The notes below the pieces were generated by a model that was not told the DNA's origin, did not search any database, and was given only the letters and a program-made list of their open reading frames with translations. A stretch of 35,647 bases of DNA from a virus. Below are positions 4,368 through 14,291 of this stretch, piece after piece. Location of the stretch: IMG/VR virus record IMGVR_UViG_3300048117_000190, positions 1 to 35,647 of that record; one strand, 5' to 3'. Both the position numbers and the translations under genes were made by a program. The number at the start of each line of letters is the position of its first letter. Position 1 is the first letter of the stretch.

Positions 4368-4931
4368 ATGTCAACACCACAAGTAACGCACTTAAAAAAT
4401 GCGTTAAGTGATGACCAAATAAAACAAATACATTCTTTAATGAACAAGAAAAAAACATTAAATGGTGGTTTGTCCGGTGGTCAAAACAATGCTTATAGAA
4501 ATGTGCAAGTAAAATCATTTGGTGCAGATGATATTGATTTAAGTTTTGTTTCAGAAGTCATTAGTGATTTTGGTCAAACTGTAAATGAAAAATATTACAA
4601 TTTTGATATAAAAGGTTTTGCCGAGCCAATACAATTTTTGACTTATAATAAGGGTGGAAAGTATGACAACCACATGGACATTAATTGGTCAGACTTAAAT
4701 ACACATATTCCAAATAGAAAACTTACAATTATAACACAACTTAGTAACACAAAAGATTATTCCGGTGGTGACATAAAAGTGGAAGTTGATAAAGTTGATG
4801 ATTTTGTTATTCCTAGACAAAAAGGTGACATGATTTGTTTTCCTGCCTTTTTAATGCACAAAGTTTACCCTATTTTAAGTGGAACACGCCATAGCCTTGT
4901 TTCGTGGCTTTCAGGCAATAGTTGGAAATAA
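4368..4931 (+). CDS. 2-oxoglutarate/Fe(II)-dependent oxygenase (prolyl 4-hydroxylase-like)
   Basis: The 187-aa protein has the iron and co-substrate residues of 2OG-Fe(II) dioxygenases: H102-x-D104 (in DNHMDINW), H164 (FLMHKVYP) and R174 (GTRHSLVSW). GGDIKV (133-138) and KGDMICFPAF (152-161) are the usual strands between the motifs. The fold is that of prolyl-4-hydroxylase/PKHD enzymes, frequent in cyanophages and pelagiphages, which hydroxylate a protein or other substrate; the target here is unknown. It is the last gene of the plus-strand fibre/lysis run, so late expression is likely. Confidence 0.9.
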   Translation: MSTPQVTHLKNALSDDQIKQIHSLMNKKKTLNGGLSGGQNNAYRNVQVKSFGADDIDLSFVSEVISDFGQTVNEKYYNFDIKGFAEPIQFLTYNKGGKYDNHMDINWSDLNTHIPNRKLTIITQLSNTKDYSGGDIKVEVDKVDDFVIPRQKGDMICFPAFLMHKVYPILSGTRHSLVSWLSGNSWK

Positions 4932-8261: not shown

Positions 8262-8494
8262 TGTGCTAAAGGATTTTTGTTGTTGTCGGCAGCTTTTTCT
8301 AACTTGCCAACCTTTTCTTCTAAAATAGCTATTTGTGTTTCTAGTGGTGCTAAGTCAACACTTTCAAATTCTCTTGCTTCTATTTGGTCAACTCTTAACA
8401 TAAGCTGTCCATATCCATAAAAGCCTGAACCTATCCCACCAATAAGCCCAATAAGCATTACATAAGTTTGTGCCTTTTTTATTAAATCGTTCAT
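8258..8494 (-). CDS. 78-aa membrane-anchored coiled-coil protein
   Basis: One membrane segment near the N-terminus (residues 11-33, glycine-rich: VMLIGLIGGIGSGFYGYGQL) is followed by an acidic helix with heptad repeats (RVDQIEAREF... LETQIAILEEKVGKLEKA). The coiled coil would lie outside the inner membrane or in the cytoplasm, depending on topology. It overlaps the 618-aa gene by ATGA and has AGGAG upstream. The layout could suit an assembly partner or anchor for the secreted proteins of this operon; a spanin- or holin-like role is possible but not shown. Confidence 0.7.
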   Translation of the reverse strand: MNDLIKKAQTYVMLIGLIGGIGSGFYGYGQLMLRVDQIEAREFESVDLAPLETQIAILEEKVGKLEKAADNNKNPLAQ

Positions 8495-10347
8495 TCGTAT
8501 CTCCTATTTAATTGTTCTATTGTTGATTGACCACGCATTATATTATGTCTTGCGTTTGAAATGCCAATTAACGAACCCATAGCATTGTTGTTATCATATA
8601 AAATATTATTTGTATATATTTGGGTTGGTTGATAGAAATTTTGTCTATCCGGTAGCTTTATATAATATTGGTTAAAGTTAGGCACAAAACCCATAAGCCC
8701 TATAATGTCATCTTGTAAAGTTATTGAATATTCTCCTGTTTCATTTTGACTATTGATTTGTGCCTGTATTTCTTCTTTTTTATTTTCTATAAAATTTTGT
8801 TCTATTTGTTGTGCTTCACTAATAGACATGACTTGCGTTGTTAAAGTTTCAATTTGTGTTGTCAAATCTACGCTAGTTATCTCAACACTTGCTATTTGAG
8901 TTGCACCTAAACCTTGACCCATATCAATAGGTACAATGTTTATATTAGAAAGAATTGTATTTTGTTGTTGTGTTTCTTGTGTAGATTGATTGTTTATACC
9001 TGAACCATCAAAACTAACACTTGATGAAACAACTTGATTATTGGTTTGTTCTTGTTGGCTTGATGATGATACATTTTGATTTACAAATTCTACGCCTTGC
9101 CTATTAGTTTCTAATGATACTTCTATTGATTGATTATTGTTTTCTTCTTCTTCTTCATTTTCTTCAACAATTTCTATTTGTTCATTTTGTTCTTCTTCTT
9201 CAACCTCCTCAAGTTCTTCAATATCCTCCATTATTTCTTCTTCAAAAAATTCTTCTATAATTTCTAATTCAACAATATCTATGTTGTCACTTTCTATATC
9301 TATAATTGGTAATTCTGATATTGATGTAATTTCAAAACCTATATCTTCAAACTCTTCATCAATTAATAATATGTTTTCAATAGGCTCTATTAAAACATTA
9401 TTGTCTATAAATTCATCATTATCTTGGGGGGTGTCGAGAGTGTCGAGGTTTGTTATGAGGTCAACACTCTCTTGTTCATCAAAGTAATCATTTTCAACAC
9501 TTATTGTAAAGACATTGCCATAAATTAATTCATCTTGGTCAAACCCATAAATATCTGCATCATTATTTTCAATGCCATAAATGTTATCTAAAAAAGAATT
9601 TTCATTTAATACATCAACATTATTTGTATCTAAATCATAAATAGAACAATAAATACTTACATTGCTATTTTCTAAACAAGTTGAACTTAATGATGTAAAA
9701 CTTTCATCTACTTCTTCTTTTGTTGTAATAGCAAAACTTGTTCGTTCTAAAGATGTTTGGTTAGTGTCGTCATACCAAAGATATTCTACATAGTCAGTCA
9801 TGCTATATTGCAAACCAACACTAGCTGAATGTTGGTCTATGTTTACTTCTTCATATAAAAATTCTATTTCATTTGTTGTTTCATATAAAATTGCTTCAAA
9901 TGTACTTTTACGACCATTGGAATATTCACTTACATCATGCCACATAACAACAAAATATTGTGCCGCACCTTCACCTAATGTTTGATAGTAAGGTGATTGG
10001 TTACCGCTTGACCTTCTTATAAAATCTGAATGTAAGGGTTTAATACTTTGATTATATCCGGTAGATGGAAATTGCTCTGCAAGATAATTTCTACGCCTAG
10101 TAACATTTGAATTGAATGTATTAACACTATCAAAAGTCATAAACCCATTCATAGCTATTGATATGTTGTTATAAGTTTGGTCACCAAACATAAAATTAAA
10201 ACCTATTGGAACATTTGCCATGCCATCATCTTGTAAAGATAAACCTGTGCCACTTTGCGTTATGTCTATAATAGAATTATTTGATGTAATAAATTCGTTT
10301 GCATGAACTTCAAAAGAAAAAAATAGTAATAGAATTATTTTATACAT
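8491..10347 (-). CDS. Secreted NIDO-like, Glu-rich surface protein
   Basis: The 618-aa protein starts with a signal peptide (cleavage probably after VHA, residue 16). Residues 45-210 resemble the nidogen-like (NIDO) extracellular domain of bacterial surface proteins: IGFNFMFGDQTYNNISIAMN..., then YFVVMWHDV (131-139), TFEAILYE (149-156), IEFLYEE and ASVGLQ. C224 and C234 may form a disulphide. Residues 330-405 are extremely acidic (runs of Glu), and 420-465 are Ser/Gln/Asn-rich. The C-terminal 70 residues (MGFVPNFNQYYIKLPDRQNF and GISNARHNIM) look like a separate conserved module. It overlaps the 317-aa gene by 13 nt. Likely exported, acting in the periplasm or at the cell surface; function unknown. 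Confidence 0.8.
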   Translation of the reverse strand: MYKIILLLFFSFEVHANEFITSNNSIIDITQSGTGLSLQDDGMANVPIGFNFMFGDQTYNNISIAMNGFMTFDSVNTFNSNVTRRRNYLAEQFPSTGYNQSIKPLHSDFIRRSSGNQSPYYQTLGEGAAQYFVVMWHDVSEYSNGRKSTFEAILYETTNEIEFLYEEVNIDQHSASVGLQYSMTDYVEYLWYDDTNQTSLERTSFAITTKEEVDESFTSLSSTCLENSNVSIYCSIYDLDTNNVDVLNENSFLDNIYGIENNDADIYGFDQDELIYGNVFTISVENDYFDEQESVDLITNLDTLDTPQDNDEFIDNNVLIEPIENILLIDEEFEDIGFEITSISELPIIDIESDNIDIVELEIIEEFFEEEIMEDIEELEEVEEEEQNEQIEIVEENEEEEENNNQSIEVSLETNRQGVEFVNQNVSSSSQQEQTNNQVVSSSVSFDGSGINNQSTQETQQQNTILSNINIVPIDMGQGLGATQIASVEITSVDLTTQIETLTTQVMSISEAQQIEQNFIENKKEEIQAQINSQNETGEYSITLQDDIIGLMGFVPNFNQYYIKLPDRQNFYQPTQIYTNNILYDNNNAMGSLIGISNARHNIMRGQSTIEQLNRRYE

Positions 10348-11288
10348 AGTTTATGTTTTTTATATTTCTTACAAAAATTTGTCTTAGTGTAAGCCTTTAT
10401 TTCATAACCTTTTGTTTCATATTTATGTTTAATATCTTCATAGTCAGGTCTTTCTTTGGGATTATTTTCATAATAATTAATAGCATCAACACCAATTAAG
10501 CTTTTGCCATTAACCATGACCGGACAAGGTGTGCCGGCATTCATCATGCTAGAGAAAACATCTTTGTTACCCTTACACATTAATGATACTGCCGCCACTT
10601 TCATTCCCATATCATAAAGAGCCTTTGCATTTTTTAAAATAATACAATTTTTATCAACAATAGTTTTACCGGCACTAATACCAAATATTTGTGTTTGTAC
10701 TGCCGCACTTGCTCCGGTGGTACACAAGTCTTGTGAGTAACTTGACATTGCAGCATTTGGTGCAATAGCCGAAGCCGGAGGTGATTTAATAGTTTGTGTT
10801 GCCCTTTGCGTTGATGATGAAACTGATTGGTTAATATTTGTATTATTATTTACGCTTTTATTTTCAGAAAAATTTTGTGAAACATTTTTGTTTTCATTTA
10901 TATTTTTACTTGAAGATATGACATTGCTTTCTGAAACTTGATTAAGTTGTGATGTGCTAACATTATTTATATTTGATGTGTTCGTGACTACATTATTTAC
11001 ATTTTGATTTTGGGTAATATTAGATGTTATGTCTTGGGTTTGGGAAATAATAGAATTATTGGTTTGATTTATAGTGCTATCAGTCGTGGAATTTTGGGTA
11101 ATATTGCTTGTAGAATTATTTGTATTAGTTTGATTTATAACAGAAGAATTTGAAGATGATGATGAAATACTTTGAGTGGTATTATTAGTGATATTAGATG
11201 TCGTTGTTGTATCTTCTGCAAAAGCCAAAAACGATACACTAATAAGTGCAACAAATATAACTACTATTTCTTTTAATTTATAATTCAT
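10335..11288 (-). CDS. Secreted Asn/Ser/Thr-rich protein with C-terminal Cys domain
   Basis: A TTG at 11294 would extend this ORF, but the ATG at 11288 gives a normal signal peptide (hydrophobic residues 9-21, cleavage near AFA). Residues 28-165 are an almost pure Asn/Ser/Thr/Gln linker. The C-terminal 150 residues form a distinct domain starting SPPASAIAPNAAMSSYSQDL, with GMKVAAVSLMC and NAGTPCP, and six cysteines (189, 215, 238, 255, 306, 315) suited to disulphides. I recall similar C-terminal domains in other marine phages, without known function. First gene of the operon. There is no Shine-Dalgarno sequence, and TATTAT ends 9 nt before the ATG. Confidence 0.8.
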   Translation of the reverse strand: MNYKLKEIVVIFVALISVSFLAFAEDTTTTSNITNNTTQSISSSSSNSSVINQTNTNNSTSNITQNSTTDSTINQTNNSIISQTQDITSNITQNQNVNNVVTNTSNINNVSTSQLNQVSESNVISSSKNINENKNVSQNFSENKSVNNNTNINQSVSSSTQRATQTIKSPPASAIAPNAAMSSYSQDLCTTGASAAVQTQIFGISAGKTIVDKNCIILKNAKALYDMGMKVAAVSLMCKGNKDVFSSMMNAGTPCPVMVNGKSLIGVDAINYYENNPKERPDYEDIKHKYETKGYEIKAYTKTNFCKKYKKHKLCIK

Positions 11289-11297
11289 GTGCAAAGA

Positions 11298-11376: not shown

Positions 11377-11403
11377 TTGACATAAGTTTGCAATAGATAT
11401 ATT
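11377..11403 (+). promoter_or_regulatory. Plus-strand early promoter
   Basis: A consensus TTGACA (11377-11382) is followed by TATATT at 11398-11403 (15-nt spacer) or TATTTT at 11400 (17-nt spacer). It would drive the plus-strand run from 11427. Confidence 0.6.
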
Positions 11404-11426
11404 TTGTAATAGTTAATGAGGAGAAC

Positions 11427-12116
11427 ATGATGAATAATTCAACAGCTAAATATGCTATTAGTAGTGGTGATAAAAATGGTTTTTACTGTTTGTATCTTCA
11501 ATGTTGGGATATTGGTTTTAATGGCAAAATATTTTATTGGCAGCATCAAAAAAATCTATCAACCAACAAAGAAAAAGCAATTAAAAAAGCAAGAGATTAT
11601 ATTGGAATTTCTGATTATGATTTTGATGTTAATTTTAATTTAGATGATTGGGGAACTAATGAGAAAGAAGAAAAATTTAATGGTAATCATAACGATAACG
11701 CTCATGTTATCTCTTACTATGAAAATAAAGAGTTTATTAAGCCAACAGATTTTTCTTTTAATGATGATAAGCAAACCTTTACAGGCAAAATTATTTTAAC
11801 TTATTGGAAAGAAAATCCTATAAATGAATATTATCCTGAAATTAATAAAATGTGGTTTTTAGATGATAGAGGTTTTGTTTTAAATCTTACAGTACCAAAA
11901 AAATTAGATGATAATATATTATCTACACATAATGATGGTGAGGTTTTACATAATTTTTTAGAAAACAAACACTACAAAGGTGTTAGATTTAGTTTTGATG
12001 CAATACTTAATGAAGATACATACACACAAGAATTTACATTAGAACATGAAAATTGTTCTCAAGATTTAAAATGTGCGTTTGTAAAAAGACCAACTAAAAT
12101 AAAAATGGAGAATTAA
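11427..12116 (+). CDS. Hypothetical protein, first gene of early plus operon
   Basis: GAGGAG precedes the ATG (a second ATG follows immediately). The 229-aa protein is rich in Asn, Asp, Lys and aromatic residues, with an N-terminal part GFYCLYLQCWDIGFNGKIFY (18-37) and a possible helix KEKAIKKARDYIG. It has no signal peptide or membrane segment. I do not recognise the family. Being first after a consensus promoter and next to an ADP-ribosyltransferase, it is a candidate early host-takeover protein. Confidence 0.75.
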   Translation: MMNNSTAKYAISSGDKNGFYCLYLQCWDIGFNGKIFYWQHQKNLSTNKEKAIKKARDYIGISDYDFDVNFNLDDWGTNEKEEKFNGNHNDNAHVISYYENKEFIKPTDFSFNDDKQTFTGKIILTYWKENPINEYYPEINKMWFLDDRGFVLNLTVPKKLDDNILSTHNDGEVLHNFLENKHYKGVRFSFDAILNEDTYTQEFTLEHENCSQDLKCAFVKRPTKIKMEN

Positions 12117-12117
12117 A

Positions 12118-12642
12118 ATGAACATGATGAATAATTACATTAGCTATACAACAGCAAAACCAAATAATCCTAAAACTAAATTACTTGATAAACTTTGGAA
12201 CTTGCACAGTGATGCCGAGTTTGGTGGACACACATTGTTTGTTGAATATTGTAATGCACATAAAATTAATTTTAAAGATTTTATAAAAATTTACAAGTTA
12301 CAAGAAAAAAGCAAACAAGATATTAGGGATTTTTTAGCATTTAAAAACGCAAAATCCATTACAGTTTGGAGAGCTGAAATAGACCATGATGAGGCTTATA
12401 GTCATGGTCATTCATGGACAGTTAATAAAAATGTCGCTAAGTTTTTTGCTAGTAGATGGAGTAACCCTCTTATATTAAGAGAGCTTCATTTAAAAAACCC
12501 TAATGTTAAAATATATGAAGCAACTATATCTGGTGATGATAATTTTTATTATTGCAATGATAGGAATGAGCATGAGATATTTTTAATTGACCCTAGTGTA
12601 GTTGAGTTTCGTGGAAGTGAAATATATGAAAGTAAGGAGTAA
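12118..12642 (+). CDS. Predicted mono-ADP-ribosyltransferase (R-S-E type)
   Basis: The 174-aa protein has the three motifs of R-S-E ADP-ribosyltransferases in order and spacing: R85 in ITVWRAE, the S-x-T strand HSWTVNKNVAKFFA with S99 and T101, and the catalytic E151-x-E153 in NEHEIFL. These enzymes transfer ADP-ribose from NAD to Arg residues or other acceptors; T4 Alt and ModA modify host RNA polymerase in this way. The N-terminal 75 residues are helical and may set target choice. Early position behind a promoter fits host takeover. The target is unknown, and overall similarity to named families was not tested. Confidence 0.7.
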   Translation: MNMMNNYISYTTAKPNNPKTKLLDKLWNLHSDAEFGGHTLFVEYCNAHKINFKDFIKIYKLQEKSKQDIRDFLAFKNAKSITVWRAEIDHDEAYSHGHSWTVNKNVAKFFASRWSNPLILRELHLKNPNVKIYEATISGDDNFYYCNDRNEHEIFLIDPSVVEFRGSEIYESKE

Positions 12643-12645
12643 AAA

Positions 12646-12897
12646 ATGCAAATATTATCATATTTAAAATCTATGGGTGAAACACCTTATAGTATTGCCA
12701 AGAAAGATAGATGGCGAGATTTAGGCACAGAAAGACAATGGTATAGATGGTGTAATGGTGAAAGCATACCAAGCCATAAAATAATGAAAATAATATTAGT
12801 TATGTCATCCGGTGCGGTTCAACCTAACGATTGGTTTGAAAACATTTGGAATGAAAACATTGTTACTATTTTGTCAAATGTGCATATAGATGACTAA
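12646..12897 (+). CDS. Cro/YdaS-like helix-turn-helix protein
   Basis: The 83-aa protein has an N-terminal helix (TPYSIAKKD) and a recognition-helix region RQWYRWCNGESIPSHKIMKI (31-50), followed by GAVQPNDWFENIW, much like the NG.SIPS...GAV...D..P tail of Cro/YdaS-type regulators. It probably binds an operator and regulates early or late phage promoters. TAAGGAG lies upstream, and it overlaps the next gene by 8 nt. As no integrase or CI-like repressor is seen, a lytic-cycle switch is more likely than lysogeny control. Confidence 0.65.
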   Translation: MQILSYLKSMGETPYSIAKKDRWRDLGTERQWYRWCNGESIPSHKIMKIILVMSSGAVQPNDWFENIWNENIVTILSNVHIDD

Positions 12898-13384
12898 AAA
12901 AACACACCTTTATGAGAATGATGAAGATAGAAATAATCAACAAAAGGTTATTGAATATGTCATGTATAAATGGAATTTTACCGCCCATGATATGCCGCTT
13001 GCTTATGAGTTTGATTTTGCTTGTATGAGAAATAAGAAAGTTGACGCAATGGTTGAGGTAAGATGCCGCAATATAGATGTCAACCAATTCGACACCATGA
13101 TTATGTCCAACAAAAAATATATGTGGGCTATACAAAATGGTGATGAAAGTCACATACCATTCTTATTTGTTGTGTGGTGGAAAAAATCTAAGACACTTGG
13201 CTATATTGATTTAAACAAAAGAAAAAAAGAATTAATTGACCCAATGAAAAATCCAAGAGGTTTGGTGCATAGACCGGAACTAGGATTACAACTAAAAGAT
13301 TACAGGAATGATTATCGAGATAGAGAAACATTAAGACATTTTAAGATAAAAGATTTTTGTATTATAACAAACAACTTTGGATAG
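12890..13384 (+). CDS. Putative PD-(D/E)XK-like nuclease
   Basis: The 164-aa protein has a weak PD-(D/E)XK pattern: YEFDFACMRNKKVDAMVEVR with D42 and E56-x-R58 in place of E-x-K, then a helix and the strand PFLFVVWWKK. The acidic pair fits a nuclease core, but Arg for Lys may mean an altered or inactive site. It lies directly before a DNA methyltransferase, so a repair or restriction-like nuclease is plausible. Its start overlaps the HTH gene by 8 nt. Confidence 0.45.
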   Translation: MTKKTHLYENDEDRNNQQKVIEYVMYKWNFTAHDMPLAYEFDFACMRNKKVDAMVEVRCRNIDVNQFDTMIMSNKKYMWAIQNGDESHIPFLFVVWWKKSKTLGYIDLNKRKKELIDPMKNPRGLVHRPELGLQLKDYRNDYRDRETLRHFKIKDFCIITNNFG

Positions 13385-13388
13385 AAAT

Positions 13389-14291
13389 ATGAATGTATTG
13401 AGTTTATTTGATGGAATGAGTTGTGGACAACTTGCATTGCATAGGGCCGGCATTAAATATGACAATTATTATGCTAGTGAAATAAAAAAATTTGCTATTG
13501 AATTAACAAAACATCATTATCCAAACACAATTCATGTAGGTGATGTTTGTAAGTTAAGTGCAAAAGATTTACCAAAGATAGATTTATTAATAGGTGGCAG
13601 CCCATGCCAAGATTTTTCAAATGCAAAAGTAAATGGAAAAGGTTTGGAAGGTGATAAATCAAGATTATTTTATGAATATTTAAGATTATTAAAAGATTGT
13701 AAGCCAAAATATTTTTTATTAGAAAATGTAAAAATGAAAAATAATAGCAAAAATCAATTAGATAATTATTTGGGTGTAGCAGGTGCTTTAATTAATTCTT
13801 CTTTAGTTAGTTATCAAACTAGGGCTAGATACTATTGGACTAATATTCCAAATGTTACTCAACCAAAAGATAAATTAATAAATTTTCAAGATTATAAAGA
13901 AACAAATAAAGATATATGTAAACAATATAAATTAAAAAAAACAAAATCAAGAATAGAAATGTGGAACAATGGTAATAAAGGAAACAATATAAAAAATTGT
14001 AAAAATATTACAAATTCAAAAAAGGTTGGCTGCCTTTTAAGGAAACAAGATAGAAGCCCAAATTCAGGTTTAATTGAGTTTGAAGATTTTTGTAGGTTTT
14101 TGACAAGAGAAGAACTTGAACAAGCACAAACTGTTCCTGTTGGTTACACTAAAACATTAAGTTTTAATCAAGCACAAGATGTTTTAGGTGATGGTTGGAC
14201 TATTGATGTAATTGCACACATATTTAAAAATATTAATAAAAAAGTAAATAAAGATATACATAAAGAATATTATCAGCAAATATTAATTTAG
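13389..14291 (+). CDS. DNA cytosine-C5 methyltransferase
   Basis: A TTG at 13377 is possible, but the ATG at 13389 gives the typical start MNVLSLFDGMSCG (motif I, SAM binding). Further motifs: GGSPCQDFS with catalytic Cys73 (IV), LLENVKM with E112 (VI), QTRARYYWTN (VIII), the target-recognition region (about 155-230), LTREELEQAQTVPVGYT (IX region) and LGDGWTIDVIAHIF (X). At 300 aa it is a complete small C5-MTase. It methylates cytosine at a specific site, probably shielding phage DNA from host restriction or altering host expression. The preceding gene may encode a nuclease, but no clear cognate restriction enzyme is present. Confidence 0.93.
   Translation: MNVLSLFDGMSCGQLALHRAGIKYDNYYASEIKKFAIELTKHHYPNTIHVGDVCKLSAKDLPKIDLLIGGSPCQDFSNAKVNGKGLEGDKSRLFYEYLRLLKDCKPKYFLLENVKMKNNSKNQLDNYLGVAGALINSSLVSYQTRARYYWTNIPNVTQPKDKLINFQDYKETNKDICKQYKLKKTKSRIEMWNNGNKGNNIKNCKNITNSKKVGCLLRKQDRSPNSGLIEFEDFCRFLTREELEQAQTVPVGYTKTLSFNQAQDVLGDGWTIDVIAHIFKNINKKVNKDIHKEYYQQILI

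What the first reader, a model, noticed from the sequence alone, without database searches (positions are those of the whole stretch)
12118..12642. Predicted phage ADP-ribosyltransferase
R85, S99-x-T101 and E151-x-E153 fit the R-S-E ART layout, with the motifs in canonical order. Phage ARTs such as T4 Alt, ModA and ModB reprogram host transcription or translation, and some can link RNA to proteins. This one is small, early and fused to an unfamiliar N-terminal helical region.
Basis: partly seen in the sequence, partly recalled or inferred. Interest (0 to 1): 0.7.

Follow-up and report, generated by a model that had tools for sequence, protein, structure and literature searches.

The report
Unannotated phage ADP-ribosyltransferase, likely host-directed
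This small viral gene most likely encodes an enzyme that sticks ADP-ribose from NAD onto other molecules in the infected bacterium; it belongs to a widespread phage protein family that the family libraries searched still list as 'unknown function'.

Summary
Window 12118-12642 (+) is an intact 174-aa ORF with a ribosome-binding site, and R85, S99-x-T101 and E151-x-E153 lie where stated. The motif alone is weak evidence: 7.6% of shuffles of the protein carry it. Homologues settle the point. In 53 non-redundant relatives R85, S99, E151 and E153 are invariant, with only four other invariant columns; T101 is T or S. Eleven annotated-phage relatives found by ordinary tblastn agree. A model from a 50-sequence alignment has a confident C-terminal core (pLDDT about 90). 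The solved structures listed for it are almost without exception ADP-ribosyltransferase (ART) folds (TreX, PltC, pertussis and cholera catalytic subunits, ParT, Arr-2, PARP; Z 4.8-6.4), although plain Foldseek E-values are not significant. The family is phrog_4776/phrog_25265, 'unknown function', with no Pfam, NCBIfam or PADLOC model. Its N-terminal helical region is not foreign: it is a shortened form of the family's own N-terminus. The gene lies in an accessory cassette with a C5 methyltransferase (Mom in a relative) and shows intragenic recombination. Best reading: a stand-alone, probably early-expressed R-S-E mono-ART acting on a host macromolecule. Target, activity and timing are untested.

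The parts
12118..12642 (+). Predicted R-S-E ADP-ribosyltransferase, 174 aa (phrog_4776 family)
12107..12110 (+). GGAG ribosome-binding site, 7 nt before the ATG
   Evidence: read from sequence
12118..12345 (+). N-terminal helical region (residues 1-76), a shortened, fast-diverging form of the family's N-terminus
12355..12639 (+). Predicted ART catalytic core (residues 80-174), pLDDT about 90 over most of it
12370..12372 (+). R85 codon, predicted NAD-binding arginine, invariant
12412..12420 (+). S99-W100-T101 codons, predicted S-x-T/S motif, invariant (T/S at 101)
12436..12456 (+). A107, F110 and R113, further invariant residues of the family signature
12568..12576 (+). E151-x-E153 codons, predicted catalytic E-x-E, invariant
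11377..11405 (+). Promoter-like TTGACA-17-TATTTT in the divergent gap before the rightward operon (such sites are not more frequent in the region than in shuffles)
11427..12116 (+). Upstream gene, 229 aa, unknown (weak phrog_3628)
12646..12897 (+). Downstream 83-aa protein, unknown, next to the ART also in L001, L002 and L005
12890..13384 (+). Phage PDDEXK_14 putative nuclease (PF24579, E 8e-19)
13389..14291 (+). C5 DNA methyltransferase (phrog_116; PF00145); replaced by a Mom DNA-modification gene in relative L002

Best explanation
The gene encodes a stand-alone NAD-dependent mono-ADP-ribosyltransferase of the R-S-E type. R85 and the S99-x-T101 motif would hold NAD, E153 would promote loss of nicotinamide, and E151 of the E-x-E motif would orient the acceptor, most likely an arginine. 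The N-terminal helical region probably helps choose the target. It would be made from the phage's accessory, probably early, operon and act on a host macromolecule, to redirect host functions or disable a defence. Basis by step: ORF and invariant residues, shown; ART-type fold, supported by prediction; NAD-dependent transferase activity, inferred (about 0.85); macromolecular host target, inferred (about 0.65); arginine acceptor, inferred from E-x-E (about 0.5); takeover versus counter-defence not separable here.
For: Invariant R/S-x-[TS]/E-x-E in 53 diverse relatives and in 11 phage proteins found by tblastn. Confident predicted core from a 50-sequence alignment, against pLDDT 38 with only four close sequences. 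Essentially every listed solved structure aligned to the core is an ART-fold protein, with TreX, PltC, pertussis S1, cholera/LT A1, ParT, Arr-2 and PARP among them. Pairwise dN/dS below 1 in the core for all pairs (0.23-0.57), so the protein is maintained. The gene lies in an operon with a C5 methyltransferase and a PDDEXK protein; in L002 the methyltransferase is replaced by Mom, as expected of a host-interaction cassette. No Macro or ADP-ribosylglycohydrolase gene in the window record. Phage ARTs of known activity modify host macromolecules (PMC9503650, PMC10468400).
Against: No significant sequence or profile match to any characterised ART: none in Pfam, NCBIfam or the PDB, and hhalign to ModA/ModB is not significant. 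Foldseek against the PDB is not significant (best E 0.13), and the VIA Z-scores of 4.8-6.4 are in a range the tool calls common. No activity, expression or target data. Host unknown.
Confidence: 0.65

Rival explanations
1. It is an R-S-E ART used as a specific counter-defence enzyme: it ADP-ribosylates one host immune protein and inactivates it, as AcrIF11 does to a CRISPR subunit. (A narrower version of the best explanation.)
For: It sits beside DNA-modification genes that vary between relatives (C5 methyltransferase or Mom), L080 also has the ART near a Mom gene, and the gene is mosaic and exchanged between phages. AcrIF11 shows that phage ARTs can do this (PMC12421852).
Against: A Mom or C5 methyltransferase gene is not a family-wide companion: Mom in 1 of 33 records and C5 methyltransferase over cut-off in 5 of 33. 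AcrIF11 uses a different active-site signature. No target is known.
Confidence: 0.25
2. It is an NAD-consuming enzyme (NADase or NAD phosphorylase) that arrests the cell or excludes other phages, not a transferase to a macromolecule.
For: Some ART-fold proteins among the structural matches act on NAD itself (MbcT, Tse6).
Against: The RES-type NAD phosphorylases replace the conserved S and E by Y and N (PMC9503650); here S99 and E153 are invariant, and E-x-E is the transferase arrangement.
Confidence: 0.1
3. It is the toxin of a toxin-antitoxin pair carried by the phage.
For: ART toxins are common in such pairs, and an 83-aa protein of unknown function follows the gene in L001, L002 and L005.
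Against: That partner is missing next to the ART in L003/L004, no neighbour recurs across the family, and Macro or ADP-ribosylglycohydrolase genes occur in only 1 and 2 of 33 records, far from the ART in those large genomes.
Confidence: 0.08
4. It is not an enzyme: the fold match is a common arrangement and the conserved residues are structural.
For: Foldseek is not significant and no sequence family links it to an ART.
Against: The four predicted active-site residues are among only eight invariant columns, and the structural list is almost uniformly ART-fold.
Confidence: 0.1

Closest known systems
phrog_4776 / phrog_25265 (phage proteins of unknown function, e.g. Mycobacterium phage LeBron gp117)
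   Same: Same family: all 50 aligned members match phrog_4776 and 39 match phrog_25265; same invariant residues
   Different: Many members have about 150 residues before the core; this one has about 76, and lacks the conserved ERPYR stretch
T4 ModA and ModB
   Same: Small phage mono-ARTs with R ... S ... E-x-E in the same order
   Different: No significant profile similarity (E 0.15); no T4-like context
R-S-E ART toxins and effectors with solved structures (TreX, PltC, pertussis and cholera catalytic subunits)
   Same: Best structural matches to the core, Z 5-6.4, 80-97 residues
   Different: About 13-18% identity; no secretion or delivery parts; a phage protein
AcrIF11
   Same: Phage-encoded ART whose sequence did not reveal its function (PMC12421852)
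   Different: Active-site signature H-F-H-D rather than R-S-E

Membership tests
ADP-ribosyltransferase superfamily, R-S-E clade | ART fold (split beta core binding NAD) | tested here: met
   Core pLDDT about 90; VIA list of 50 entries almost all ART-fold, Z 4.8-6.4. Caveat: Foldseek E not significant, and the tool warns that Z under 8 can be a common arrangement
ADP-ribosyltransferase superfamily, R-S-E clade | Conserved Arg in the first strand | tested here: met
   R85 53/53, in predicted strand 81-88
ADP-ribosyltransferase superfamily, R-S-E clade | S-x-T/S motif | tested here: met
   S99 53/53, T101 51 T + 2 S; search pattern included SW[TS], but tblastn-found relatives agree
ADP-ribosyltransferase superfamily, R-S-E clade | Catalytic Glu in an [EQ]-x-E motif | tested here: met
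   E151 and E153 53/53, and 11/11 in tblastn-found relatives
ADP-ribosyltransferase superfamily, R-S-E clade | NAD-dependent ADP-ribosyl transfer | not testable with these tools
   Needs biochemistry
T4 Mod family | Significant sequence or profile similarity to ModA/ModB | tested here: inconclusive
   hhalign E 0.15, only 18 columns, though aligned on the S-x-T motif; the Mod side had two sequences, and a control protein scored alike
T4 Alt/VIP2 family | Match to the known ART family models in Pfam | tested here: inconclusive
   No Pfam match at E up to 10; Alt itself was not compared
RES-type NAD phosphorylase | Conserved S and E replaced by Y and N (PMC9503650) | tested here: not met
   S99 and E153 invariant
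AcrIF11 | H-F-H-D active-site signature (PMC12421852) | tested here: not met
   R-S-E residues instead
ART toxin-antitoxin system | Adjacent conserved antitoxin or ADP-ribose eraser | tested here: inconclusive
   No Macro or ADP_ribosyl_GH match in the window; 1/33 and 2/33 in the records searched, many of them fragments

The most novel reading that the evidence does not exclude
phrog_4776 is an unrecognised family of phage R-S-E ARTs, present in about a hundred sequenced mycobacteriophages and in many uncultured phages, in which a variable N-terminal helical region selects different host immune or regulatory targets while phages exchange the catalytic segment by recombination.
Probability: 0.25. 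Interest if true: 0.65.

Novelty: new member of a known kind. Interest (0 to 1): 0.42.

Why it matters
It gives a testable enzymatic function to a phage protein family labelled 'unknown function' in PHROGs and 'hypothetical protein' in nearly every record seen, including many genetically tractable Mycobacterium smegmatis phages. Phage ARTs are known tools for reprogramming or disarming the host, and the literature survey used here reports them in only about 3% of siphoviruses and podoviruses (PMC9503650); whether that survey counted this family could not be checked.

Tried and rejected
Pfam, NCBIfam, PADLOC and PDB sequence searches gave no relevant match. A first structure prediction with four close homologues failed (pLDDT 38) and was replaced by one with 50 sequences. 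T4 ModA.3 was used as a negative control for hhalign and scored like ModA/ModB, so the ModA/ModB comparison carries no weight. A scan of genome contigs with the whole protein found nothing; with the distant alignment it gave four loci in bacterial or MAG contigs, not examined in depth for prophage origin. Literature searches found no paper naming this family. The BFVD structural matches are mostly uncharacterised viral proteins. A toxin-antitoxin reading was considered and ranked low for want of a recurring partner.

Full report
Observation. The ORF at 12118-12642 (+) is intact, starts with ATG after a GGAG site, and encodes 174 residues with R85, S99-W-T101 and E151-H-E153 as reported. The motif layout alone is weak: it appears in 7.6% of 5,000 shuffles of the same protein.

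Family. P0001 matches phrog_4776 (E 5e-8) over residues 78-163 and no Pfam, NCBIfam or PADLOC model. Close viral relatives were found first, then LeBron gp117, a Lysinibacillus phage protein and a faecal phage protein. An alignment of these reached 59 viral loci. In 53 non-redundant sequences R85, S99, W100, A107, F110, R113, E151 and E153 are 53/53, and T101 is 51 T + 2 S. In the 50-row alignment the same eight columns are the only invariant ones. All 53 carry the SW[TS] search pattern, which biases S99/W100 but not R85, E151 or E153. Eleven relatives in phage records, found by tblastn and not by pattern, keep all the key residues; three of these were also among the 53. tblastn with LeBron gp117 finds 110 phage records, 103 of them Mycobacterium phages, and nearly all listed ones are annotated hypothetical.

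Fold. With four sequences the prediction failed. With 50 it gave mean pLDDT 76, about 90 through most of the core from residue 80 on, 52-61 over residues 1-60. Foldseek against the PDB is not significant (best E 0.13). The VIA second look lists 50 entries, Z 4.8-6.4, and these are almost all ART-fold proteins: TreX, PltC, pertussis S1, KptA, Arr-2, ParT, MbcT, Tse6, cholera and LT A1, PARPs. That these are ART-fold proteins is general knowledge of the named entries. The tool warns that Z below 8 can mean only a common arrangement; the uniformity of the list, together with the invariant R, S and E residues, is what carries the argument. The aligned ranges with cholera A1 (model 79 to chain 1) put R85 near its catalytic Arg7; this is a rough inference from range ends and from general knowledge of that enzyme, not a residue-level alignment.

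N-terminus. Many relatives have about 150 residues before the core, with conserved stretches such as ERPYR and W-x-D-x-EN. This protein keeps a remnant of the second (W27, D32, E34) and lacks the first.

Mosaic gene. Against L003, the core is 91% identical in DNA (dS 0.17) and the N-terminal part 60% (dS 0.84); against L002, which shares downstream synteny, the core is 87% (dS 0.39) and the N-terminal part 74% (dS 0.63). Informative sites switch in blocks: nt 1-70 L002-like, roughly 300-480 L003-like, 481-522 L002-like; permutation p = 0.0004 for a single best break. This indicates recombination within the gene between phage lineages. Pairwise dN/dS is below 1 throughout.

Context. The gene is second in a rightward run after a divergent gap holding TTGACA-17-TATTTT at 11377, although such sites are no more frequent than in shuffles. 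Downstream come an 83-aa protein, a PDDEXK_14 protein (PF24579, E 8e-19) and a C5 methyltransferase. In L002 the methyltransferase position is held by a Mom gene (PF25680, E 1e-36), and L080 also has a Mom gene downstream of its ART gene. L003 and L004 have different neighbours, including a resolvase (Pfam match for L003). No neighbour recurs across the family. Macro and ADP_ribosyl_GH genes are absent from the window and present in 1 and 2 of 33 records respectively; many records are fragments. The host is unknown; the closest terminase in the phage collection is from Phage C72C1, 57% identity.

Interpretation. The best reading is an R-S-E mono-ART used on a host macromolecule. Known phage ARTs of this clade do this (T4 Alt, ModA, ModB; PMC9503650, PMC10468400). 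E-x-E suggests arginine as acceptor, from general knowledge of the clade. Counter-defence is a serious variant of the same idea. NAD hydrolysis, a toxin-antitoxin role and a non-enzymatic role are less likely. Membership of the T4 Mod family was not shown: hhalign gave E 0.15, no better than a control protein.

Novelty. Phage ARTs are well known, so this is a new member of a known kind. What is new in the material searched is the assignment of an ART role to phrog_4776. The 2022 survey of viral NAD systems assigns viral ARTs to 16 families; its supplementary tables could not be read here, so prior recognition is not excluded.

Noticed in passing
window 12118-12642 vs L002, L003: The ART gene is a mosaic: blocks alternate between L002-like and L003-like sequence, with the catalytic segment (about nt 300-480) L003-like.
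   Followed up: yes
window 13389-14291 and L002:5034-5678: A C5 DNA methyltransferase in the window is replaced at the same position by a Mom DNA-modification gene in a relative.
   Followed up: partly
window 12890-13384: PDDEXK_14 putative phage nuclease directly upstream of the methyltransferase, kept with the 83-aa gene and the ART in L001, L002 and (partial contig) L005.
   Followed up: partly
window 8491-11294 (-): Two leftward proteins (618 and 319 aa) with low-complexity stretches rich in S, N, Q, T or E just left of the ART operon; relatives of both lie beside the ART in L002.
   Followed up: no
window 4368-4931: 2OG-Fe(II) oxygenase (PF13640, E 1e-11).
   Followed up: no
L018 (Lysinibacillus phage LysYB1): The homologue is annotated 'mRNA catabolic process', a label not supported by Pfam here.
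   Followed up: no
PDB 9k3a chain B, residues 1418-1608: A cyanophage A4 pre-ejectosome protein aligns to the ART core at Z 5.4, so that ejection protein may hold an ART-like domain.
   Followed up: no
G012 and G013 (records of L033, L034): Two large phage genomes carry both an ART of this family and an ADP-ribosylglycohydrolase, tens of kilobases apart.
   Followed up: no
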